Shown here: in pieces, positions 7,839-38,919 of the stretch
Numbering within the stretch: the first letter of the stretch is position 1
Layout: each line of letters opens with the position of its first letter
The notes under the pieces: generated by a model
The model's database searches: none
What the model was told of the DNA's origin: nothing
Seen by the model: the letters and a program-made list of their open reading frames with translations, nothing else
Program-made: the position numbers and the translations under genes
From: Rothia nasimurium
GTDB lineage: Bacteria; Actinomycetota; Actinomycetes; Actinomycetales; Micrococcaceae
Reading direction: 5' to 3'
Length of the DNA: 64,000 bases
NCBI RefSeq assembly: GCF_928381705.1
Contig: NZ_CAKMSR010000006.1
Span: 1-64,000, forward strand

Positions 7839-10800
7839 ATGTACCTAAAATCTTTGACCGTGCGCGGCTTTAAGTCTTTTGCGTCGGCCACCGTGTTTGA
7901 GTTTGAGCCGGGCTTGAATGTGCTGGTGGGGCCGAACGGGTCGGGTAAGTCGAACGTGGTGGATGCCCTTGCCTGGGTGATGGGTGCCCAGGGGGCTAAG
8001 CAGCTGCGCGGCGGCGCCATGAAGGACGTCATTTTTGCTGGCGGTGGTTCCCGCGGTGCGCTGGGGCGCGCCAGGGTTGAGCTGGTGATTGATAACGAGG
8101 ACGGCGCCCTGCCGCTGCCTCATGCTGAGATTCGGCTTTCGCGCACCATGTTTTCTGCAGGCGGTTCTGAGTACGAGATTAACGGGGAGCCTGCCCGTCT
8201 GGCTGATGTGCAGGACTTACTGGCGGACGCCGGTGTGGGCCGGGAACTCTACACCCTGGTGGGGCAGGGGCAGGTCGATAAGATTTTGCACGGCACCGCT
8301 GATGACCGGCGCGAGCTGATTGAGCAGGCTGCCGGCTTGCTCAAGCACCGTAAGCGCCAGGCGAAGACCGCGAGCAAGCTTGATGATTTGAAGACCAATC
8401 TTGACCGGCTGGAGGATCTAGCCGGTGAGCTGGCTGAGCAGCTGGAAGGACGCCGGGAGCAGGCTGACGCGGCCCGGGCAGCTAGCGAGGTGGCGGGCCG
8501 TGTTCGTAGCTTGACCGCTGATCTTCTGGCTCATGACGCGCGTGCCATGATGCAGGAGCGGGAGGCCGAGCATGCCGCTGGCCAACAGGCTGAGGCTGCC
8601 CGCCTACGGGCGCAGGAGCGCAGCCGCACCCTCGAGGGGCAGCTGGGGGAGTTGGCCAAGGCCCGGCAGGTAGCCCAGCAGGCACTTGATGAGGCCACCC
8701 AGCGCCGTACCTCCTTGAAAGAGGTGGCCCACCTGGTGGAGACGGTTCAGCTGGTGGCTGCTGAACGTTTGTCCGCCTCCCACCACGAGGAAGAAGACCA
8801 GGACGCCGCCACCCGCCTAGATTCGGCCCAGCAGGCCTGTGCCCGGGAGGAAGAAAACCTTGAACGGGCCCGGGAGGCGGGGAAAGCGGCTGAAGAAGAA
8901 CTTACCGCTGCCCACTCTGCCCTAGAAAAGGCTCGGGTGGAGCAGAGCACGGCCCAGCAGGCACTGGCTACGGCCGACCAGCAGGTGCGGGACTATAAGG
9001 AGAACCTGTCGCAGCTCACCGCCCAGCTGGCTACCGCCCGCGTAGCTTTTGAGCGAGCCGGTGAAGAGGCCGCCCGTCGGGTGGCTGAGTATGCCGAGGC
9101 TAAAGAGCAGGGGGCTTCAGCCGGTGCTGATACCGAGCGGGCCCAGGCCGCCGTGAACGGCTACCGGGAGCAGCTAGAGCGGGCCGAAGCCGAAGAAGAA
9201 AACCTGCGTCGGGCGCGGCAGCGGGCGAGCGAAGCGGTGGAGTCCAGCCGCAAAGAACTGCATCAAGCTCAGGTAAAGCTTCATGCTGCTCAAGCTCGCT
9301 GCGAGGCCCTTGAGGCGGCCTGGCAGCATGACGATGCCGAAAGTGGCGATAGTGAAGGTCTCCGCCAGCAGGCCCTGGAGCAGGGAGCTCAGGAACTTAT
9401 TTCTCTACTTGAGATTGAAGATACCTGGCAGGCTGCTGTGGCTGCTGCCTTGGGCCCCTATCTGAGGGCCCTCACCCTGACGAGCGGTGAGTCCCTGCCC
9501 GCTGGAGTAACCCAGCTTTATTCCTTTGAGGGTGACATTGAGCAGATTGACCTGCATGAACTATCTACATCTCAAGCTGAGGTTTATCAAGCCCGCCCGC
9601 TGGCGGACGTCCTGACCGCACCGCAGGCCCTCAGCCGCGCTCTCGCTGTGCTCACCGCTGATACCTACCTGACTCCCGATCAAGAAGCCGCCCGCGCCCT
9701 GGTAGCTGCCCACCCGGGCGTCCGCGCTGTGACCCCCGACGGTACCGTGCTGACCGCAGGCTCAACCCTCTACCCCTCCCAAGAGCGACCCCTGACTGAA
9801 CGCTACGCTGAACTCACCCGAGCTCAACAGACCCACCGGGAGCTTGCCCAGCAACAGGAGCAGGCAGAGAGAGCCCACCAGCAGGCCGAAGAAGTACTAA
9901 AGACTGCCCAGGAGGCTGAAAAAGCCCAGGCCCGCACCACCGGTTCACTCACGGCCCAGCTAACTGCCGCCCGGGCAGACCTTGCCACCCTCACCGGCCG
10001 GGCAGAAAGCTCACAGGCGGCCCTTGACCGTCTGCAAGAAGCTGCAACCCGCGCTGAAGAAGCCCAGAAAGAGACCCAAAGGCACGTGGAGGCCGCCCAA
10101 GAGGCCTTGGCTCGGGCTCGCAGCACGGAGCCCCAAGCCGACAGTGCTACCCTGCGCGAGGCCGTCCGCACCGCAGAAAAAACCCTGGTCGCAGCCCAGG
10201 AGGCTAAAACCCTCGCCGAGGCTACAGCAATCTACGCCCGCGAAAAAGAGGAAGCTGCCCAGGCCCGTCTCACTCAGGCCCAAGAAGCCCTGGCCGCCCT
10301 CGAAAAGGCTGAGGAAGCTCGTCAGCTGCGTCAACAAGAGGCCGCTGACACCGGGCATCGTGCCCGCAGGGTAGCTGCCTGCGCCAAGGCTCTGGCACTG
10401 GCCCTCGCGCAGGTGGAGAGCCAAGAGAACGAAGAACACAGTAAGGCCCTGGCCCGTGCTGAGCAGGCCCAGCAGACCCTCACTGCCACCCGCGAAGAAC
10501 TGGCCGGGGCCCAGACATCGCTGGCTGCTGCCCTAACCCTGCAGGCTGAATCGTCGGCCCAGGGCGCCCGCGTTGAAGCCCGCTGGGAAGCCCTGACCCA
10601 GCGGATAGATAGCGAATTGGGGCTCAGCCTTGAGGCCCTGCTAGAGAGCCGCAAGGCCGGTGACCTGCCCCGGGAGGATATCGAGACTGACCTTGCGGCG
10701 GCCGAGGCAGAGCTGGCCCGCCTGGGAGTTATCAACCCCCTGGCCCTTGAAGAATATGAGGCCCTCGAACAGCGCCATAGCTACCTGCGCCAGCAGATTA

Positions 10801-11315
10801 AAGACATCAAGACCTCGCGGGCAGACCTGCGGGCCGTGATGAAGGACGTGACCGGCCAGATTGAAACCTCTTTCAATCGGGCACTGGCCGATGTGCAGGT
10901 GGAGTTCAGTCGAATCTTTGCCCTGCTCTTTCCCGGCGGCCAGGCCGAACTGGTGCTGGCTGACCCCAACGACCTTGAGCACAGCGGGCTTGATATCCGA
11001 GTGACACCGGCCGGTAAGAAGGTCACCCGTCTTTCCCTGCTCTCTGGCGGCGAGCGCACCCTGGCCTCTCTGGCCCTGCTCCTGGCGGTTTTTATGGCCC
11101 AGCCTGCCCCCTTCTATGTGCTGGATGAGGTAGAAGCTGCGCTTGATGACCGTAACCTGGGCCGTCTGCTGGAGGTGCTAGGGCAGCTGCGGGAGAAGTC
11201 CCAGCTGCTGATGATTACCCACCACCAGCGCACCATGGCCCAGGCCGATACCCTTTACGGCATCACCATGCGGCAGGGGGTATCAAGCGTACTCTCGCAC
11301 CGCCTGGCGGACTAG
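7839..11315 (+). CDS. smc: Chromosome segregation ATPase SMC
   Basis: Structural maintenance of chromosomes protein, the core of the condensin that organises and segregates replicated origins. Walker A is GPNGSGKSNV at 31-40. Then come a long Ala/Glu/Gln/Arg-rich coiled coil, a globular hinge (roughly residues 520-650, around GPYLRALTLTSGESLPAG), a second coiled coil, and the C-terminal head with signature LSGGERTLASLALL and Walker B FYVLDEVEAALDD. I chose ATG at 7839 because MYLKSLTVRGFKSFA is the canonical N-terminus; the upstream open frame is non-homologous. Length 1158 aa is standard. It is usually followed by ftsY, but here a minus-strand MFS gene intervenes. Klebsiella-type MukB is excluded by the motifs. 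Confidence 0.96.
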   Translation: MYLKSLTVRGFKSFASATVFEFEPGLNVLVGPNGSGKSNVVDALAWVMGAQGAKQLRGGAMKDVIFAGGGSRGALGRARVELVIDNEDGALPLPHAEIRLSRTMFSAGGSEYEINGEPARLADVQDLLADAGVGRELYTLVGQGQVDKILHGTADDRRELIEQAAGLLKHRKRQAKTASKLDDLKTNLDRLEDLAGELAEQLEGRREQADAARAASEVAGRVRSLTADLLAHDARAMMQEREAEHAAGQQAEAARLRAQERSRTLEGQLGELAKARQVAQQALDEATQRRTSLKEVAHLVETVQLVAAERLSASHHEEEDQDAATRLDSAQQACAREEENLERAREAGKAAEEELTAAHSALEKARVEQSTAQQALATADQQVRDYKENLSQLTAQLATARVAFERAGEEAARRVAEYAEAKEQGASAGADTERAQAAVNGYREQLERAEAEEENLRRARQRASEAVESSRKELHQAQVKLHAAQARCEALEAAWQHDDAESGDSEGLRQQALEQGAQELISLLEIEDTWQAAVAAALGPYLRALTLTSGESLPAGVTQLYSFEGDIEQIDLHELSTSQAEVYQARPLADVLTAPQALSRALAVLTADTYLTPDQEAARALVAAHPGVRAVTPDGTVLTAGSTLYPSQERPLTERYAELTRAQQTHRELAQQQEQAERAHQQAEEVLKTAQEAEKAQARTTGSLTAQLTAARADLATLTGRAESSQAALDRLQEAATRAEEAQKETQRHVEAAQEALARARSTEPQADSATLREAVRTAEKTLVAAQEAKTLAEATAIYAREKEEAAQARLTQAQEALAALEKAEEARQLRQQEAADTGHRARRVAACAKALALALAQVESQENEEHSKALARAEQAQQTLTATREELAGAQTSLAAALTLQAESSAQGARVEARWEALTQRIDSELGLSLEALLESRKAGDLPREDIETDLAAAEAELARLGVINPLALEEYEALEQRHSYLRQQIKDIKTSRADLRAVMKDVTGQIETSFNRALADVQVEFSRIFALLFPGGQAELVLADPNDLEHSGLDIRVTPAGKKVTRLSLLSGGERTLASLALLLAVFMAQPAPFYVLDEVEAALDDRNLGRLLEVLGQLREKSQLLMITHHQRTMAQADTLYGITMRQGVSSVLSHRLAD

Positions 11316-34176: not shown

Positions 34177-34605
34177 GTGGCTGTTAAAATTCGTCTGAAG
34201 CGTTTCGGTAAAATCCGCGATCCCCGCTACCGTGTTGTAGTAGCTGACTCACGCACCAAGCGTGACGGTAAGGCTATCGAGGAAATCGGCATTTACCACC
34301 CGACCGAGAACCCCTCACGCATCGAGATCAACTCAGAGCGTGCCCAGTACTGGCTGTCCGTTGGCGCCCAGCCCACCGAGCAGGTAGCTGCTCTGCTGAA
34401 GCTGACCGGCGACCTGGCTGCTGCCAAGGGCGAAAAGGCTGAGTCAACCGTAAAGCCCGTTGACGCCAAGCCCGAGTTCGTTGTTCCCGAAAAGGGTTCC
34501 GTTATCCTTCCCGAGGCAATCACCCCCAAGGGCGAGGACAAGGCTGAAGAAGCTCCCGCAGAAGAGGCTGCTGAAGAAGCAGCTTCTGAGGAAGCAGCTG
34601 AGTAA
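34177..34605 (+). CDS. rpsP: 30S ribosomal protein S16
   Basis: Small-subunit ribosomal protein, 142 aa, starting GTG ([20 protein letters not shown]). The core (1-80) is canonical, with GRAIEEIG-type and YHPTENPS motifs. The C-terminus carries an actinobacterial extension ending in a Glu/Ala-rich acidic run ([19 protein letters not shown]). It opens the conserved rpsP-khpA-rimM-trmD-rplS block, with khpA starting 2 nt downstream. Confidence 0.97.
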
Positions 34606-34607
34606 TC

Positions 34608-34850
34608 ATGTTGGCTGACGCTCTCGAACACCTCGTTCGGGGTATCGTCGACAACCCAGACGACGTCCAGGTGCGCGCCAAAACCGGCCGCCGGGGCGAA
34701 ACCCTGGAGGTTCGCGTGAACCCTGATGACCTTGGCCGTGTGATTGGCCGCTCCGGCCGCACCGCCAAGTCCATCCGCACCGTGGTCAACGCCATCAACG
34801 ACGGCGACCATGTGCGCGTAGACGTCATCGACACGGACAAGCGACGCTAA
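34608..34850 (+). CDS. khpA: KH-domain RNA-binding protein KhpA
   Basis: 80-residue single KH-domain protein (YlqC/DUF1150-like family now called KhpA), an RNA chaperone that partners KhpB in other Gram-positives. The GxxG-type loop is VIGRSGRTAKSIRTVVNA. ATG starts 2 nt after the rpsP stop. Normally rimM follows directly; here a terminator hairpin and a restriction cassette intervene. Confidence 0.93.
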   Translation: MLADALEHLVRGIVDNPDDVQVRAKTGRRGETLEVRVNPDDLGRVIGRSGRTAKSIRTVVNAINDGDHVRVDVIDTDKRR

Positions 34851-34858
34851 CTGAATAC

Positions 34859-34903
34859 AAAAAAGTAATCCTGAGTGTATAATATGCTCAGGATTACTTT
34901 TTT
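34859..34903. terminator. Bidirectional terminator with TATAAT in the loop
   Basis: Perfect 17-bp arms (34859-34875 and 34887-34903), AAAAAAGTAATCCTGAG on the left and its complement on the right, flank an 11-nt loop. The A- and T-tracts make it work in both directions. The loop contains a consensus -10 box TATAAT (34878-34883), 35 bp before the mcrB ATG. Read-through from khpA would stop, while transcripts starting inside the right arm would not form the hairpin. The -35 region is poor. Confidence 0.8.
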
Positions 34904-34917
34904 GTGAGGTTATATAA

Positions 34918-36549
34918 ATGGATTCACCTGTCGAATGGATATCAGCCGATAAGTCTGTGACATCATATCAAGCAGACTCAAATCGAAAAGAACCGCAATC
35001 ATTAACTTTTGATGAATTTCTCTCATTGAAGCTGGAAGATGGAGGGAAGTTTCACCTCCTGAGTGGTACTGTAATTGATTTTGAATACACAGGTACCAAT
35101 GAGAAAATAAGTGGATTAATAAAAAAATATAAAGAAAACTATACTGTTGGTCGTAAATCAACTATTGGCCAGTCTTTAGTTGCGTTAGCTTATTTCGGTG
35201 GATACAAAAACTTTCTTGAAACTCAAGCCGGAAGCTTACCAATTGCAGGAAATATTAGAGTTAATGATCCTAAGATTTACCATAATTTTCTAGATAATTT
35301 CAAAAATTTTGTTGATGAACCTGAATTTCTTGAAATAAAAATGGTTGGATACAGTAGATATGATGAAAAGATTGGGACAACCTCAAGGGTGTTCAGAAAT
35401 AACAATTTAAATGTTGAATTGGGCTGGTCGGAGGAAAATATGCTTGAGGAAGCTGGTGGTGGATACTCAGATTCTAAATTGGTAATTTCTTCACTAAATA
35501 CAATTTTAGAGGGCGTAGCCGGCTGTGGAAAAACATATTATCAGAAATCGCTTTTTGATTCTCAAGATATCAACGGCCATTTTGGGTTTGACCCTGAACT
35601 AAGCGAAACTGTAGTTTTTCACCCCTCAACCTCGTATGAGGATTTTGTATCAGGTTTGCGTCCTCAGAAAGGCGGAAACTTTTCAGGTAAAGCTGGTATT
35701 TTCGTGGAGCTCTGTAACCGTGCTGCAGCAGACCAGGAGAATAACTACCTACTCTTTATCGATGAGATTAACCGTGCCAACACCGCGAAGGTATTCGGTG
35801 ATCTACTCATGGTAATTGAGGAAGCCAAGCGAACTCCTAAAGAGCTACTCAGTAAGTACGGCCGAGCGGTTCTCACCCGTAAGGAAGCAAAGGAGCTGCA
35901 AAGTACCCGCTATGAAGATAAAGATCCGGAGCATGCAGCCGTTCGTTTGCAAACTGCAGTCGATGAGGTCCCCGGCATCTCTAAATTACCTGAAGAACCG
36001 CTCGAATATCTAGCTGTTCCTAACAACCTTTACATTGTTGGAACCATGAATTCGACGGACCGTTCTGTGGGAACCATCGACTTGGCTCTGCGGCGTCGCT
36101 TTACCTGGCACACCATGGAGCCTATGACAATGGAACAACTTCGTGGCCAGAAAAAAGTGAAACACCGCACTGACCTTGACCAGTTACGTCCTCTCCTGAG
36201 TTGGTATAACGAGGCTAATGAGAAGCTCTACACCAAGGTGGGCCCTGATGCACGCTTGGGACATTCCTACTTCTTCCAAGACGATAAATCTGCCCAGCAG
36301 ATTGCCCATGACCTCCTCAAACAACTGGCTGAAATCGCCTACATCTTCCATCTAGAAGATTTAATGACCGAGTCACCCTTCAACCAGACAATTAACGGTC
36401 TCCGCCTTGAAATGCCGGGTGATGGTCTGGGCAAGAGAGTCATCGTAGCTTTTGCACCCACCAGTCCAGACACCGAAACCCCGGATGGGGGTGCAGAGCC
36501 CCTAGAATCTTCTGATGAGTCTTCAGAAAGCTTAGCTGATGAAGGTTAA
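34918..36549 (+). CDS. mcrB: McrB-like GTPase subunit of a type IV restriction system
   Basis: AAA+ motor of a methylation-dependent restriction enzyme, 543 aa. Residues 1-185 are a domain that I do not recognise, in the place where McrB proteins carry their modified-DNA binding domain. Then come P-loop GVAGCGKT (199-206), Walker B LLFIDEINRAN (278-288) and the McrB-specific GTP motif MNSTDRS (377-383), followed by LRRRFTW with arginine fingers. The first ~770 nt (to about 35690) are very AT-rich, while the rest approaches host composition. The gene therefore looks like a mosaic whose N-terminus was replaced. TGAGGT precedes the ATG. The stop lies 11 nt inside mcrC. Confidence 0.88.
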   Translation: MDSPVEWISADKSVTSYQADSNRKEPQSLTFDEFLSLKLEDGGKFHLLSGTVIDFEYTGTNEKISGLIKKYKENYTVGRKSTIGQSLVALAYFGGYKNFLETQAGSLPIAGNIRVNDPKIYHNFLDNFKNFVDEPEFLEIKMVGYSRYDEKIGTTSRVFRNNNLNVELGWSEENMLEEAGGGYSDSKLVISSLNTILEGVAGCGKTYYQKSLFDSQDINGHFGFDPELSETVVFHPSTSYEDFVSGLRPQKGGNFSGKAGIFVELCNRAAADQENNYLLFIDEINRANTAKVFGDLLMVIEEAKRTPKELLSKYGRAVLTRKEAKELQSTRYEDKDPEHAAVRLQTAVDEVPGISKLPEEPLEYLAVPNNLYIVGTMNSTDRSVGTIDLALRRRFTWHTMEPMTMEQLRGQKKVKHRTDLDQLRPLLSWYNEANEKLYTKVGPDARLGHSYFFQDDKSAQQIAHDLLKQLAEIAYIFHLEDLMTESPFNQTINGLRLEMPGDGLGKRVIVAFAPTSPDTETPDGGAEPLESSDESSESLADEG

Positions 36550-38158
36550 CGGTGCCCAGACCCAAACTGAAACCACCCGCTGGTTCCAGGTCAGTAGCCG
36601 GGGTAACGGGGTAGGGCTAACTGTGATTAGAGTTCCCATATCACCGAACTCCAATGACCATGCAACCTTGATTTTCCATATCCTACCCAAGCTGTGGCGC
36701 CCTCAATATGCGAGAACTCTTACCCTCGACATTGGAGAGCTAAAAGCTCACCAGGAAAATCACTTCGTCCTCAATGAGCAGGACCTTATCGGCGTACACG
36801 ATTCCTACCTGGTGGAAGTGTTAACCACCCTGGTTGAGAATAAGCCAGTCACGGAAGAGCTCCTTGCAGAAGAAGCCGTTGTTTCTGCTTCTGAAAATGA
36901 TGACAACTCCAGGCTCTCGCCTCTTTGGTCTGTAACATCTGCACCACAAGGGGGAGTGGGTGGGTTCCTTCTGCCTGAAAATTCACAAGAGCTGGAGGGG
37001 CCTATGGCCCTTTGGACCATGTTGGACGCCTATCAGGTTAAAATCGAGCCCATCCCGACTTCCAAAGATTTTGGATCAGCCGGTATGGCTATGTTTGCAA
37101 CGAGCAGACTGATGAAGCAGTTTGTATACCAACGTTTTATCGAAGAAGTCCTGCTTTCCCTGCGAGACCGACGCCCCCAGTATGTCTTACAGACAGACCA
37201 TATTGCTACTGTCAAAGGACGGATCACCCCGGAAGGGCTGATCAAAAGGAAGATTACTGGCTCAGCAAAAATTGAGTGTGAATTTGATGAGCTAACCCCG
37301 GATAATCACATCTGGCAGGTTATCAGGGCCGCTGTCGAGCTGTGTGTTCCCGAGCTCAAACGCCACCACGTCAAGAATAAAAAGACCAGCTATGCAAAGG
37401 CACTGCTAGCAGCAGCCCAATTGCGCGATGTCACGGTAGCTTCAAGACAGGCCCTTCTGTCGCAAGCAGCATACTACACTGTGCCCCGGCAAGAGTCCTC
37501 TGCTGTTCGCACTAGCTACGAACTTGCACGAGCAATCCTGCAGGCTAAGTTCAACGCATCAGTCAATAAGCAAGAAGCACCTGGTGTTGTAGCCAACCTC
37601 AAATACTCCATGAACGGACTCTGGGAACAGATGGTCCAAGAGCAATTCAATAAGGTTGATAATACTGAGGCTGCTGGACAAAACGAATCGGCAAAGGTCC
37701 ATATTTTCTATGACCGGAAAGATGGACAGTGGGGTAGAGCGTTGGACGGCGGCAAACGACCTGACGTCGTCGTCAAATATACACAAAACAACACAGAATC
37801 AACCTTCTATGTAGACGCTAAATATAAGGTAAACGAACTGGGAATCACTAAGGCAGGGATGGGAGACCAATATCAGATGGCCACTTACGCCTTGAGAACC
37901 AAACGGAACGTATATCTGGCCTATCCCACCTGTGACGCTGAGCTGGTCAAAAAAGTGCCTGAATTCCAGTACATTCCCTACGCAGATCCGTACACCGATA
38001 CCCAGGAAATACCTGCTACTAATGAATTTATTCAAGTAGGTCAGTTCTATCTTCCCTTCCCCTCCCAAGAGGACGCCCAAAGAAAGAACTTTGTTCCAAC
38101 AGCAAGTCAACTGACTCCTGAACGGGTCAAGGAATTATCTCGCACCTCTTTTGCCTAG
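36539..38158 (+). CDS. mcrC: McrC-like nuclease subunit of a type IV restriction system
   Basis: Endonuclease partner of McrB, 539 aa. The N-terminal ~300 residues match the McrC plan, including VKGRITPEGLIKRK and IECEFDELTPDNHIWQVI. The C-terminal PD-(D/E)xK core is complete: Glu363, RPDVVV (Asp409), YVDAKYK (Asp426, Lys428) and a downstream GDQYQM. The ATG at 36539 overlaps mcrB by 11 nt, implying coupled translation. No methyltransferase gene is adjacent, consistent with type IV systems that cut modified foreign DNA. A strong terminator follows before rimM. Confidence 0.88.
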   Translation: MKVNGAQTQTETTRWFQVSSRGNGVGLTVIRVPISPNSNDHATLIFHILPKLWRPQYARTLTLDIGELKAHQENHFVLNEQDLIGVHDSYLVEVLTTLVENKPVTEELLAEEAVVSASENDDNSRLSPLWSVTSAPQGGVGGFLLPENSQELEGPMALWTMLDAYQVKIEPIPTSKDFGSAGMAMFATSRLMKQFVYQRFIEEVLLSLRDRRPQYVLQTDHIATVKGRITPEGLIKRKITGSAKIECEFDELTPDNHIWQVIRAAVELCVPELKRHHVKNKKTSYAKALLAAAQLRDVTVASRQALLSQAAYYTVPRQESSAVRTSYELARAILQAKFNASVNKQEAPGVVANLKYSMNGLWEQMVQEQFNKVDNTEAAGQNESAKVHIFYDRKDGQWGRALDGGKRPDVVVKYTQNNTESTFYVDAKYKVNELGITKAGMGDQYQMATYALRTKRNVYLAYPTCDAELVKKVPEFQYIPYADPYTDTQEIPATNEFIQVGQFYLPFPSQEDAQRKNFVPTASQLTPERVKELSRTSFA

Positions 38159-38187
38159 AGACAAAACTAGGAGAAGAAAAAGATAAT

Positions 38188-38225
38188 AGCCCCATACCAG
38201 CATCTCGCTGGCATGGGGCTTTTAC
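38188..38225 (+). terminator. Terminator after mcrC
   Basis: AGCCCCATACCAGC (38188-38201) pairs with GCTGGCATGGGGCT (38207-38220) with one wobble, followed by TTTTA. It closes the restriction cassette, so rimM needs its own promoter. Confidence 0.85.
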
Positions 38226-38252
38226 CTACCCACCGGCGTCCGTAAAACCCGG

Positions 38253-38258
38253 TAAAGT
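38253..38258 (+). promoter_or_regulatory. Candidate -10 element for rimM
   Basis: TAAAGT lies 44 bp before the rimM GTG, just downstream of the mcrC terminator. The hexamer recurs before smc and rnpB. No clear -35 box. Confidence 0.3.
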
Positions 38259-38301
38259 TAGACCCAAACCCCACACCACCTTTACCCCCAAGGAGATACG
38301 C

Positions 38302-38919
38302 GTGCAGGTACAGGTCGCCCGCATCGGCAAACCCCACGGCATCCGCGGCGAAGTCACCGTCCAGCTCTTCACCGACGCCCCCGAAGAACGCTTCGCTCCC
38401 GGGGCTGTACTGGAGATCGAAAACTTCAACCCCGCAAGCCCCGCAGGAGCCATCGCCCCCGCCGGAACCCTCACCGTCAAAAAAGCCCGCTGGAACAAGA
38501 AAATCCTGGTCGTAGCCTTCGAAGAAGTCACCAACCGCAACCAGGCCGAAGAACTCCGCGACACCCGCCTCACCTTCGACTCCTCCGCAGAAGCCGACAC
38601 CGACAGCGACGACGAAGGCTACTACGAGCACGAACTGCTCGACCTGCCCGTCTACCTGGCCGCCGACATCAAGGACGGCTACCTACCCGAAGAACCCATC
38701 GCCATCGTCACCGGCCTGCAGACCATGCCCACCCAGGATCTGCTGATCCTCGAAAACACCGCAGATGGTGAAGAGGTCATGATCCCCTTCGTCGAAGAAC
38801 TTATCCCCGCTATTGACACCGAAGAGGGCTACATCATCATCAACCCTCCCGCCGGCCTGCTCGAACTCAACAGCGACGATGAAGAAGTAGAGCCCGAGAC
38901 CGAGAGTGAGCACAACTAA
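38302..38919 (+). CDS. rimM: Ribosome maturation factor RimM
   Basis: 16S processing factor that binds S19 during 30S assembly, 205 aa. [16 protein letters not shown] is the family N-terminus. The second (PRC-barrel) half has [12 protein letters not shown] and [21 protein letters not shown] at 38302 has AAGGAGAT upstream. The C-terminal ~15 residues are acidic. trmD follows after 5 nt. Confidence 0.95.

What the first reader, a model, noticed from the sequence alone, without database searches (positions are those of the whole stretch)
34859..38225. McrBC-like restriction cassette inserted inside the rpsP-khpA-rimM-trmD operon
The order rpsP-KH-rimM-trmD-rplS is among the most conserved in high-GC Gram-positives. 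Here a complete two-gene type IV restriction system (AAA+ GTPase with MNSTDRS, and PD-(D/E)xK nuclease) sits exactly between khpA and rimM. It is bounded on the left by a 17-bp perfect hairpin and on the right by a terminator. Insertion of a defence cassette into an essential ribosomal operon requires the downstream genes to acquire a new promoter. No transposase, integrase or direct repeat is visible.
Basis: partly seen in the sequence, partly recalled or inferred. Interest (0 to 1): 0.7.

Follow-up and report, generated by a model that had tools for sequence, protein, structure and literature searches.

The report
Swappable McrBC cassette beside rimM
A Rothia-group bacterium carries an intact phage-defence (McrBC-like) gene pair in a small slot between two conserved ribosome-maturation gene groups, a slot that close relatives leave empty or fill with other DNA, so it looks like an exchange site for accessory genes.

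Summary
An intact McrBC-type pair (mcrB 34918-36549, mcrC 36539-38158) lies between khpA and rimM, with a strong hairpin on each side. Of 33 genus genomes holding both flanking genes, 3 carry mcrBC here, 3 carry other inserts of 0.7-0.9 kb, and 27 have 110-242 bp. The core gene smc is 92-97% identical in the window's group, yet its McrB motor and McrC are only 68-73% identical to the other two copies, and the McrB N-terminal domain shows no detectable relation to theirs. Alleles were probably replaced or acquired separately.

Occupied clade alleles end in a hairpin plus a conserved motif and hold no recombinase-sized gene besides mcrBC; one insert is flanked by an 18-bp direct repeat. I favour exchange by homologous recombination through the flanks. 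Restriction, termination and promoters are inferred. Two other genera of the family hold unrelated cargo at the junction. This is a new location of a known kind: a variable site between core genes.

The parts
34177..34605 (+). rpsP (conserved left neighbour)
   Evidence: Pfam PF00886 E=1.8e-25
34608..34850 (+). khpA (left flanking gene)
   Evidence: NCBIfam NF002761, 130.4 bits over cut-off 106
34856..34906 (+). Left hairpin of the cassette, terminator-like
   Evidence: -30.6 kcal/mol, z -9.3; stands where cassette-free relatives have another hairpin after khpA; not called by the plain terminator scan
34878..34883 (+). TATAAT in the hairpin loop, candidate -10 box for mcrB, beginning 40 bases before the ATG
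   Evidence: G019 and G028, with a different hairpin, have TATCAT at the same distance; promoter function inferred, no good -35, not called by the promoter scan
34918..36549 (+). mcrB: N-terminal module plus AAA+ GTPase-type motor
34918..35478 (+). McrB N-terminal module (presumed specificity domain), low GC, no clear family match
   Evidence: no similarity to the G028 N-terminus; 21-23% in forced alignment; no Pfam, plasmid or viral relative
36539..38158 (+). mcrC: McrBC nuclease subunit with PD...DxK motif
   Evidence: PF10117 E=1.8e-18; motif
38188..38220 (+). Right hairpin, terminator-like
   Evidence: z -6.3; the terminator scan calls it on the minus strand only
38226..38243 (+). Right-boundary motif CTACCCACCGGCGTCCGT, where the cassette ends and the shared rimM leader begins
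   Evidence: present in empty and occupied alleles; on both sides of the G018 insert
38244..38301 (+). rimM leader, nearly identical in empty and occupied alleles of the eight closest genomes
38302..38919 (+). rimM (right flanking gene)
   Evidence: TIGR02273 E=1.9e-31

Best explanation
This is a Type IV (McrBC-like) restriction cassette in an exchangeable slot between rpsP-khpA and rimM-trmD. McrB would form a GTP-driven AAA+ motor whose N-terminal module picks the target, and McrC would cut the DNA (inferred from families). The slot lies where one transcription unit appears to end (hairpin after khpA) and the next to begin (rimM leader), so cargo can come and go without hurting either. The cassette has a hairpin at each end, insulating it; the -10-like box in the left hairpin loop may start mcrB transcription (inferred). 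Cargo moves without a recombinase of its own, by homologous recombination through khpA on one side and the hairpin-motif-rimM stretch on the other, after transformation or transduction (inferred). Shown here: the anatomy, the variable occupancy, the excess divergence of the cargo over smc, and the mosaic patterns.
For: Occupancy: 33 of 35 genus genomes have both genes; gaps over 600 bp in 6 of 33, 110-242 bp in 27; mcrBC at the site in 3 of 33 (G000, G019, G028). G018 holds a 95-aa + 62-aa gene pair, G016 short ORFs that look broken, G002 nothing recognised. Divergence: smc 92-97% identical in nucleotides among G000, G018, G019, G004, G005, G028, G016, yet the G000 McrB motor is 71% and McrC 68-73% identical to the G019/G028 proteins. 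Mosaics: the McrC C-terminus (400-539) of G000 is 90% identical to G028 but 70% to G019 (nucleotides); G028 rimM-trmD has 100-base windows at 78-86% to G005 where G004 and G005 agree at 94-98%. Slot: hairpin candidate after khpA in all 33 (29 of 33 above all shuffles). G028 is serial: mcrBC, hairpin and imperfect motif, truncated copy of the G018 pair, hairpin and motif, rimM. G018 has the 18-bp motif on both sides. ComEC-family protein in 8 of 8 clade genomes searched.
Against: No transcript data; 4 of 33 hairpins did not beat all shuffles, and the plain scan of the window found no plus-strand terminator at either end of the cassette. The divergent rimM-trmD windows are not tied to an insert: G030, whose junction is empty, has windows at 72-88% to G005, and G019 has two at 82-85%. 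One genome per species, so no swap within a species was seen. ComEC-family proteins ring in 10 of 14 control genomes too. PADLOC gave McrB only REase_II-type hits and a weak PDC-S03 hit, and McrC none. The N-terminal module matches no known reader. Other cargo is not proven to be defence: the G018 pair has no significant family hit; of G016 two ORFs were searched, of G002 none. Confidence lowered from 0.72 to 0.70 on rechecking because of the G030 windows.
Confidence: 0.7

Rival explanations
1. Old resident: mcrBC was gained once at the base of the clade and lost in most lineages; divergence reflects fast evolution of a defence gene.
For: Same site and gene order in three species; G019 and G028 copies are 82-88% identical by region and share the left hairpin type.
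Against: G000 is 95.4% to G019 in smc but 68% in McrC and without detectable relation in the McrB N-terminus; G018, nearest to G000 by smc, has other cargo plus the empty-type left hairpin; four of ten clade junctions are empty without visible scars.
Confidence: 0.15
2. Integron-like or other site-specific cassette system: each unit is cargo plus hairpin plus an 18-bp motif, joined at the motif by a recombinase encoded elsewhere.
For: Units in G018 and G028 meet at hairpin-motif stretches; G020 keeps a short remnant after its motif.
Against: A strict hairpin-plus-motif pattern occurs once, at this site, in 5 of 10 genomes searched and nowhere in the other 5 (it misses variant copies); no recombinase-sized ORF besides mcrB and mcrC in the Rothia inserts. 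The genomes were not searched for integrases.
Confidence: 0.08
3. The cassette is placed here to be expressed by read-through from the rpsP promoter.
For: mcrB, mcrC and the G018 pair all point the same way as rpsP.
Against: A strong hairpin precedes mcrB in all three mcrBC alleles (energy for G000), and a -10-like box begins 40 bases before each ATG.
Confidence: 0.1

Closest known systems
E. coli K-12 McrBC (Type IV restriction)
   Same: AAA+ motor with McrB signature and McrC nuclease in one operon-like pair
   Different: N-terminal module without a sequence match; scores far below the NCBIfam equivalog cut-offs (121.9 of 637 and 39.2 of 338 bits)
McrBC census and CoCoNuTs (PMC11090510; passages seen)
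   Same: Variable specificity modules fused to a conserved GTPase, as the passages describe
   Different: Signature MNSTD rather than the NxD variant of the CoCoNuT branch; coiled coils were not tested here
Core defence hotspots of Pseudomonas aeruginosa (PMC10250203; passages seen)
   Same: Variable cargo between conserved core genes, no single mobile element, flank recombination proposed
   Different: Much smaller, within a ribosome-maturation gene run, one recognised defence system so far
Listeria immigration control region (PMC10059834; start of abstract in a search listing)
   Same: Diverse restriction systems at one chromosomal site
   Different: Other phylum, other flanking genes

Membership tests
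McrBC Type IV restriction system | McrB AAA+ domain related to known McrB | tested here: met
   6hz4 E=1.3e-32; AAA_5
McrBC Type IV restriction system | McrB GTPase signature MNxxD | tested here: met
   MNSTD at residue 377; signature recalled from knowledge
McrBC Type IV restriction system | McrC family partner with PD-(D/E)xK nuclease motif | tested here: met
   PF10117 67 bits, cut-off 23.9; RPD...DAK; no PADLOC hit and no PDB sequence hit
McrBC Type IV restriction system | N-terminal domain that reads modified bases | tested here: inconclusive
   no Pfam match; weak PADLOC PDC-S03 match, residues 25-70, E=2.6e-4; model unusable, pLDDT 34
McrBC Type IV restriction system | GTP-dependent cleavage of modified DNA | not testable with these tools
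   needs biochemistry
Core defence hotspot | Same conserved flanks, varied content in related genomes | tested here: met
   6 of 33 junctions over 600 bp, with different contents
Core defence hotspot | Several different defence systems at the site | tested here: inconclusive
   only mcrBC recognised; G018 pair and two G016 ORFs unmatched, G002 not searched
Integron cassette array | attC-like sites and an integrase | tested here: inconclusive
   module found only at this site by a strict pattern; no integrase-sized ORF besides mcrBC in the inserts; genomes not searched for one
CoCoNuT | NxD-type GTPase signature | tested here: not met
   MNSTD; criterion from passages
CoCoNuT | Long coiled-coil regions | not tested
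   no coiled-coil prediction was run

The most novel reading that the evidence does not exclude
The khpA-rimM junction is a recombinase-free cassette dock: units of cargo plus hairpin plus an 18-bp motif stack in series. The motif's core belongs to a clade-specific dispersed word (CCGGCGTCCGC, 122-152 copies per genome in eight genomes) that acts like a DNA uptake or recombination signal, so natural transformation preferentially delivers and swaps defence cassettes here. I know of no such signal in Actinomycetota; two paper searches (listings only) showed none.
Probability: 0.1. Interest if true: 0.75.

Novelty: new member of a known kind. Interest (0 to 1): 0.42.

Why it matters
It marks a concrete landing site for accessory genes inside a well conserved bacterial gene run, and suggests how that is tolerated: the site already looks like a boundary between a terminator and a leader. 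The site is short and simple to screen in many strains for new defence genes. It also offers a test of whether defence genes can travel by ordinary homologous recombination alone, and a McrB specificity module of unknown target.

Tried and rejected
Exact left hairpin searched in genome contigs: 0 matches, the own genome possibly left out. Origin of the McrB N-terminus: no plasmid match at E 1, no viral contig relative, no Pfam, no similarity to the G028 N-terminus. Full McrB against genome contigs gave one confirmed locus, Rothia nasimurium 15QC2CO, whose contig length equals that of G019 contig C1. Full McrB matched 254 plasmid and 11 phage records, each below 60% identity and none covering 80% of the query. 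AlphaFold of residues 1-195 without an alignment failed (pLDDT 34), so no fold search was run. McrC had no PDB sequence hit. I considered Chi-like polarity for the dispersed word and found no clear strand bias (GGCGTCCGC 28/28, 19/26 and 12/9). Most copies of the short core lie in predicted genes with frame preference, so part of the excess may be codon usage; only the longer forms are clearly enriched between genes, the 13-mer 7 of 14 against 1.8 expected (rough ORF-based gene calls). Inverted pairs stay within the simulated range. Of 24 papers holding the terms of a search for an insertion at rimM/rpsP, the 8 listed showed nothing on point.

Full report
What is there. The window lies in contig C6 of a 2.6 Mb genome. 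Gene order is rpsP, khpA, mcrB, mcrC, rimM, trmD, confirmed by Pfam and NCBIfam. mcrB and mcrC are intact and overlap. McrB has Walker A and B motifs and MNSTD; McrC has an RPD...DAK motif. The motor matches E. coli McrB structures at E=1.3e-32. Near the start of mcrB GC is 33-38%, in the rest 47-51%, in the surroundings about 60%. PADLOC named neither protein McrBC: McrB hit REase_II models and, weakly, PDC-S03; McrC hit nothing.

Whose genome. The one relative found in the named collection is Rothia nasimurium 15QC2CO; its contig length, 618258, equals that of G019 contig C1, so I take the genus to be Rothia. The species of the window is not established; its smc is 95.4% identical to that of G019.

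Is the site variable? Both flanking genes were found in 33 of 35 genus genomes. The khpA-rimM gap is 110-242 bp in 27 of 33 and over 600 bp in 6 of 33: G028 3788, G000 3454, G019 3368, G016 917, G018 788, G002 674. mcrBC is at the site in G000, G019 and G028 only. G018 holds a pair of small genes (95 and 62 aa) with no significant family match; from recall it resembles a toxin-antitoxin pair, and the only plasmid match of the 95-aa protein is a hypothetical protein of Kocuria at 40% identity. G016 holds short ORFs that look broken (two searched in Pfam without a hit). G002 has ORFs up to 102 aa that I did not search. In the ten-genome clade around the window (G000, G004, G005, G016, G017, G018, G019, G020, G028, G030), five junctions carry cargo, G020 a short remnant, and four are empty (G004, G005, G030, G017).

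Old resident or newcomer? Seven genomes (G000, G018, G019, G004, G005, G028, G016) are 92-97% identical in smc, about 23 kb away. Against this the McrB motor of G000 is 71% and its McrC 68% (G019) and 73% (G028) identical, and the N-terminal modules show no detectable relation (21-23% in forced alignment; no BLAST similarity). G019 and G028 are closer to each other (motor 86%, McrC 82%, N-terminus 88%). The last quarter of McrC is 90% identical between G000 and G028 but 70% between G000 and G019, a mosaic. In G028, windows of rimM-trmD fall to 78-86% against G005 where G004 and G005 agree at 94-98%, and the next 600 bases return to 96-100%. This may be an imported tract, but it is not tied to an insert: G030, with an empty junction, has windows at 72-88%, and G019 two at 82-85%. 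Repeated replacement or acquisition fits better than one gain with losses; for G019 and G028 alone one shared gain is not excluded.

How the slot works. A stem-loop candidate follows khpA in all 33 junctions; 29 of 33 score above all 40 mononucleotide shuffles, and G002, G014, G016 and G027 do not, G014 and G027 probably because my scorer handles bulges poorly. Hairpin energies are strong in the empty allele G005 (z -6.9) and at both ends of the window's cassette (z -9.3 and -6.3). The plain consensus scan called no plus-strand terminator there, so termination is inferred. The rimM leader is nearly identical in empty and occupied alleles of the eight closest genomes; G017 and G020 differ more. 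Hence the insertion need not have forced a new rimM promoter. The left hairpin goes with the N-terminal module: one type in G000, another in G019 and G028. In all three a -10-like box in the hairpin loop begins 40 bases before the mcrB start; that it is a promoter is inference, and the promoter scan, run on the window only, did not call it.

Modular ends. Occupied clade alleles end in a hairpin or its remains, then a motif like CTACCCACCGGCGTCCG, then the shared leader. G018 keeps the empty-type hairpin and motif on the left and has a second hairpin and motif on the right, so its insert is flanked by an 18-bp direct repeat. G028 has mcrBC, a hairpin and imperfect motif, a truncated copy of the G018 pair, then another hairpin and motif. 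A strict hairpin-plus-motif pattern occurs once in 5 of 10 clade genomes, at this site, and not in the other 5. The inserts hold no recombinase-sized ORF besides mcrB and mcrC. Homologous recombination through the flanks is the simplest mechanism; a ComEC-family protein is present in 8 of 8 clade genomes searched, but also in 10 of 14 controls.

Beyond the genus. In a survey of 158 family genomes I measured 143; median gap 152 bp, over 1 kb in 8 of 143, seven of them in two other genera. Sampled cargo there: glycosyltransferases and a TupA-like protein in one genus, a sensor kinase in the other; 2 of 8 proteins searched had no hit. So the junction takes accessory genes of several kinds, not only defence genes. 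A McrC relative at E 1e-30 was found in 9 of 295 family genomes.

What is known. Variable specificity modules on McrB are documented (PMC11090510, passages), and hotspots between core genes, with flank recombination proposed, are documented in Pseudomonas (PMC10250203, passages). Micrococcus luteus, which I place in the same family from recall, takes up DNA with Flp pili (PMC4322843, passages). The listings of my searches showed no paper on this junction; they cover only the held library and only the rows listed. I therefore rate it a new member of a known kind.

Noticed in passing
38226-38243 and genome-wide; relatives G004, G005, G016, G018, G019, G028, G030: A clade-specific dispersed word, CCGGCGTCCGC: 122-152 copies per genome in eight genomes, similar on both strands, against 1-7 for the reversed control; 43-50 in G017 and G020, 25-32 in G007 and G008; two other genomes have 34 and 49 but with controls of 23 and 20, the rest 0-15. 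Its core gives the most over-represented 8- and 9-mers of the window; the 13-base form is enriched between predicted genes, 7 of 14 against 1.8 expected.
   Followed up: partly
G000:C7:49749-52426 (L044, L064): A second, divergent mcrBC pair (McrC about 35% identical) at a locus sharing flanking DNA with G005, G018, G028 and G030, with divergent alleles; the G019 relative of its McrC has one internal stop.
   Followed up: partly
L066, L069, L070, L071 (khpA-rimM junctions of two other genera): Inserts of 8-11 kb with glycosyltransferases, a TupA-like protein, or a sensor kinase at the same junction.
   Followed up: partly
7839-11312 (smc) against G030: smc of G030 is only 75% identical while its rpsP-khpA is 99% identical to the window, suggesting replacement of smc in one lineage or a fast-evolving gene.
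   Followed up: no
34990-35127: Weak PADLOC match of McrB residues 25-70 to PDC-S03, E=2.6e-4, a hint that this module is shared with another candidate defence protein.
   Followed up: no
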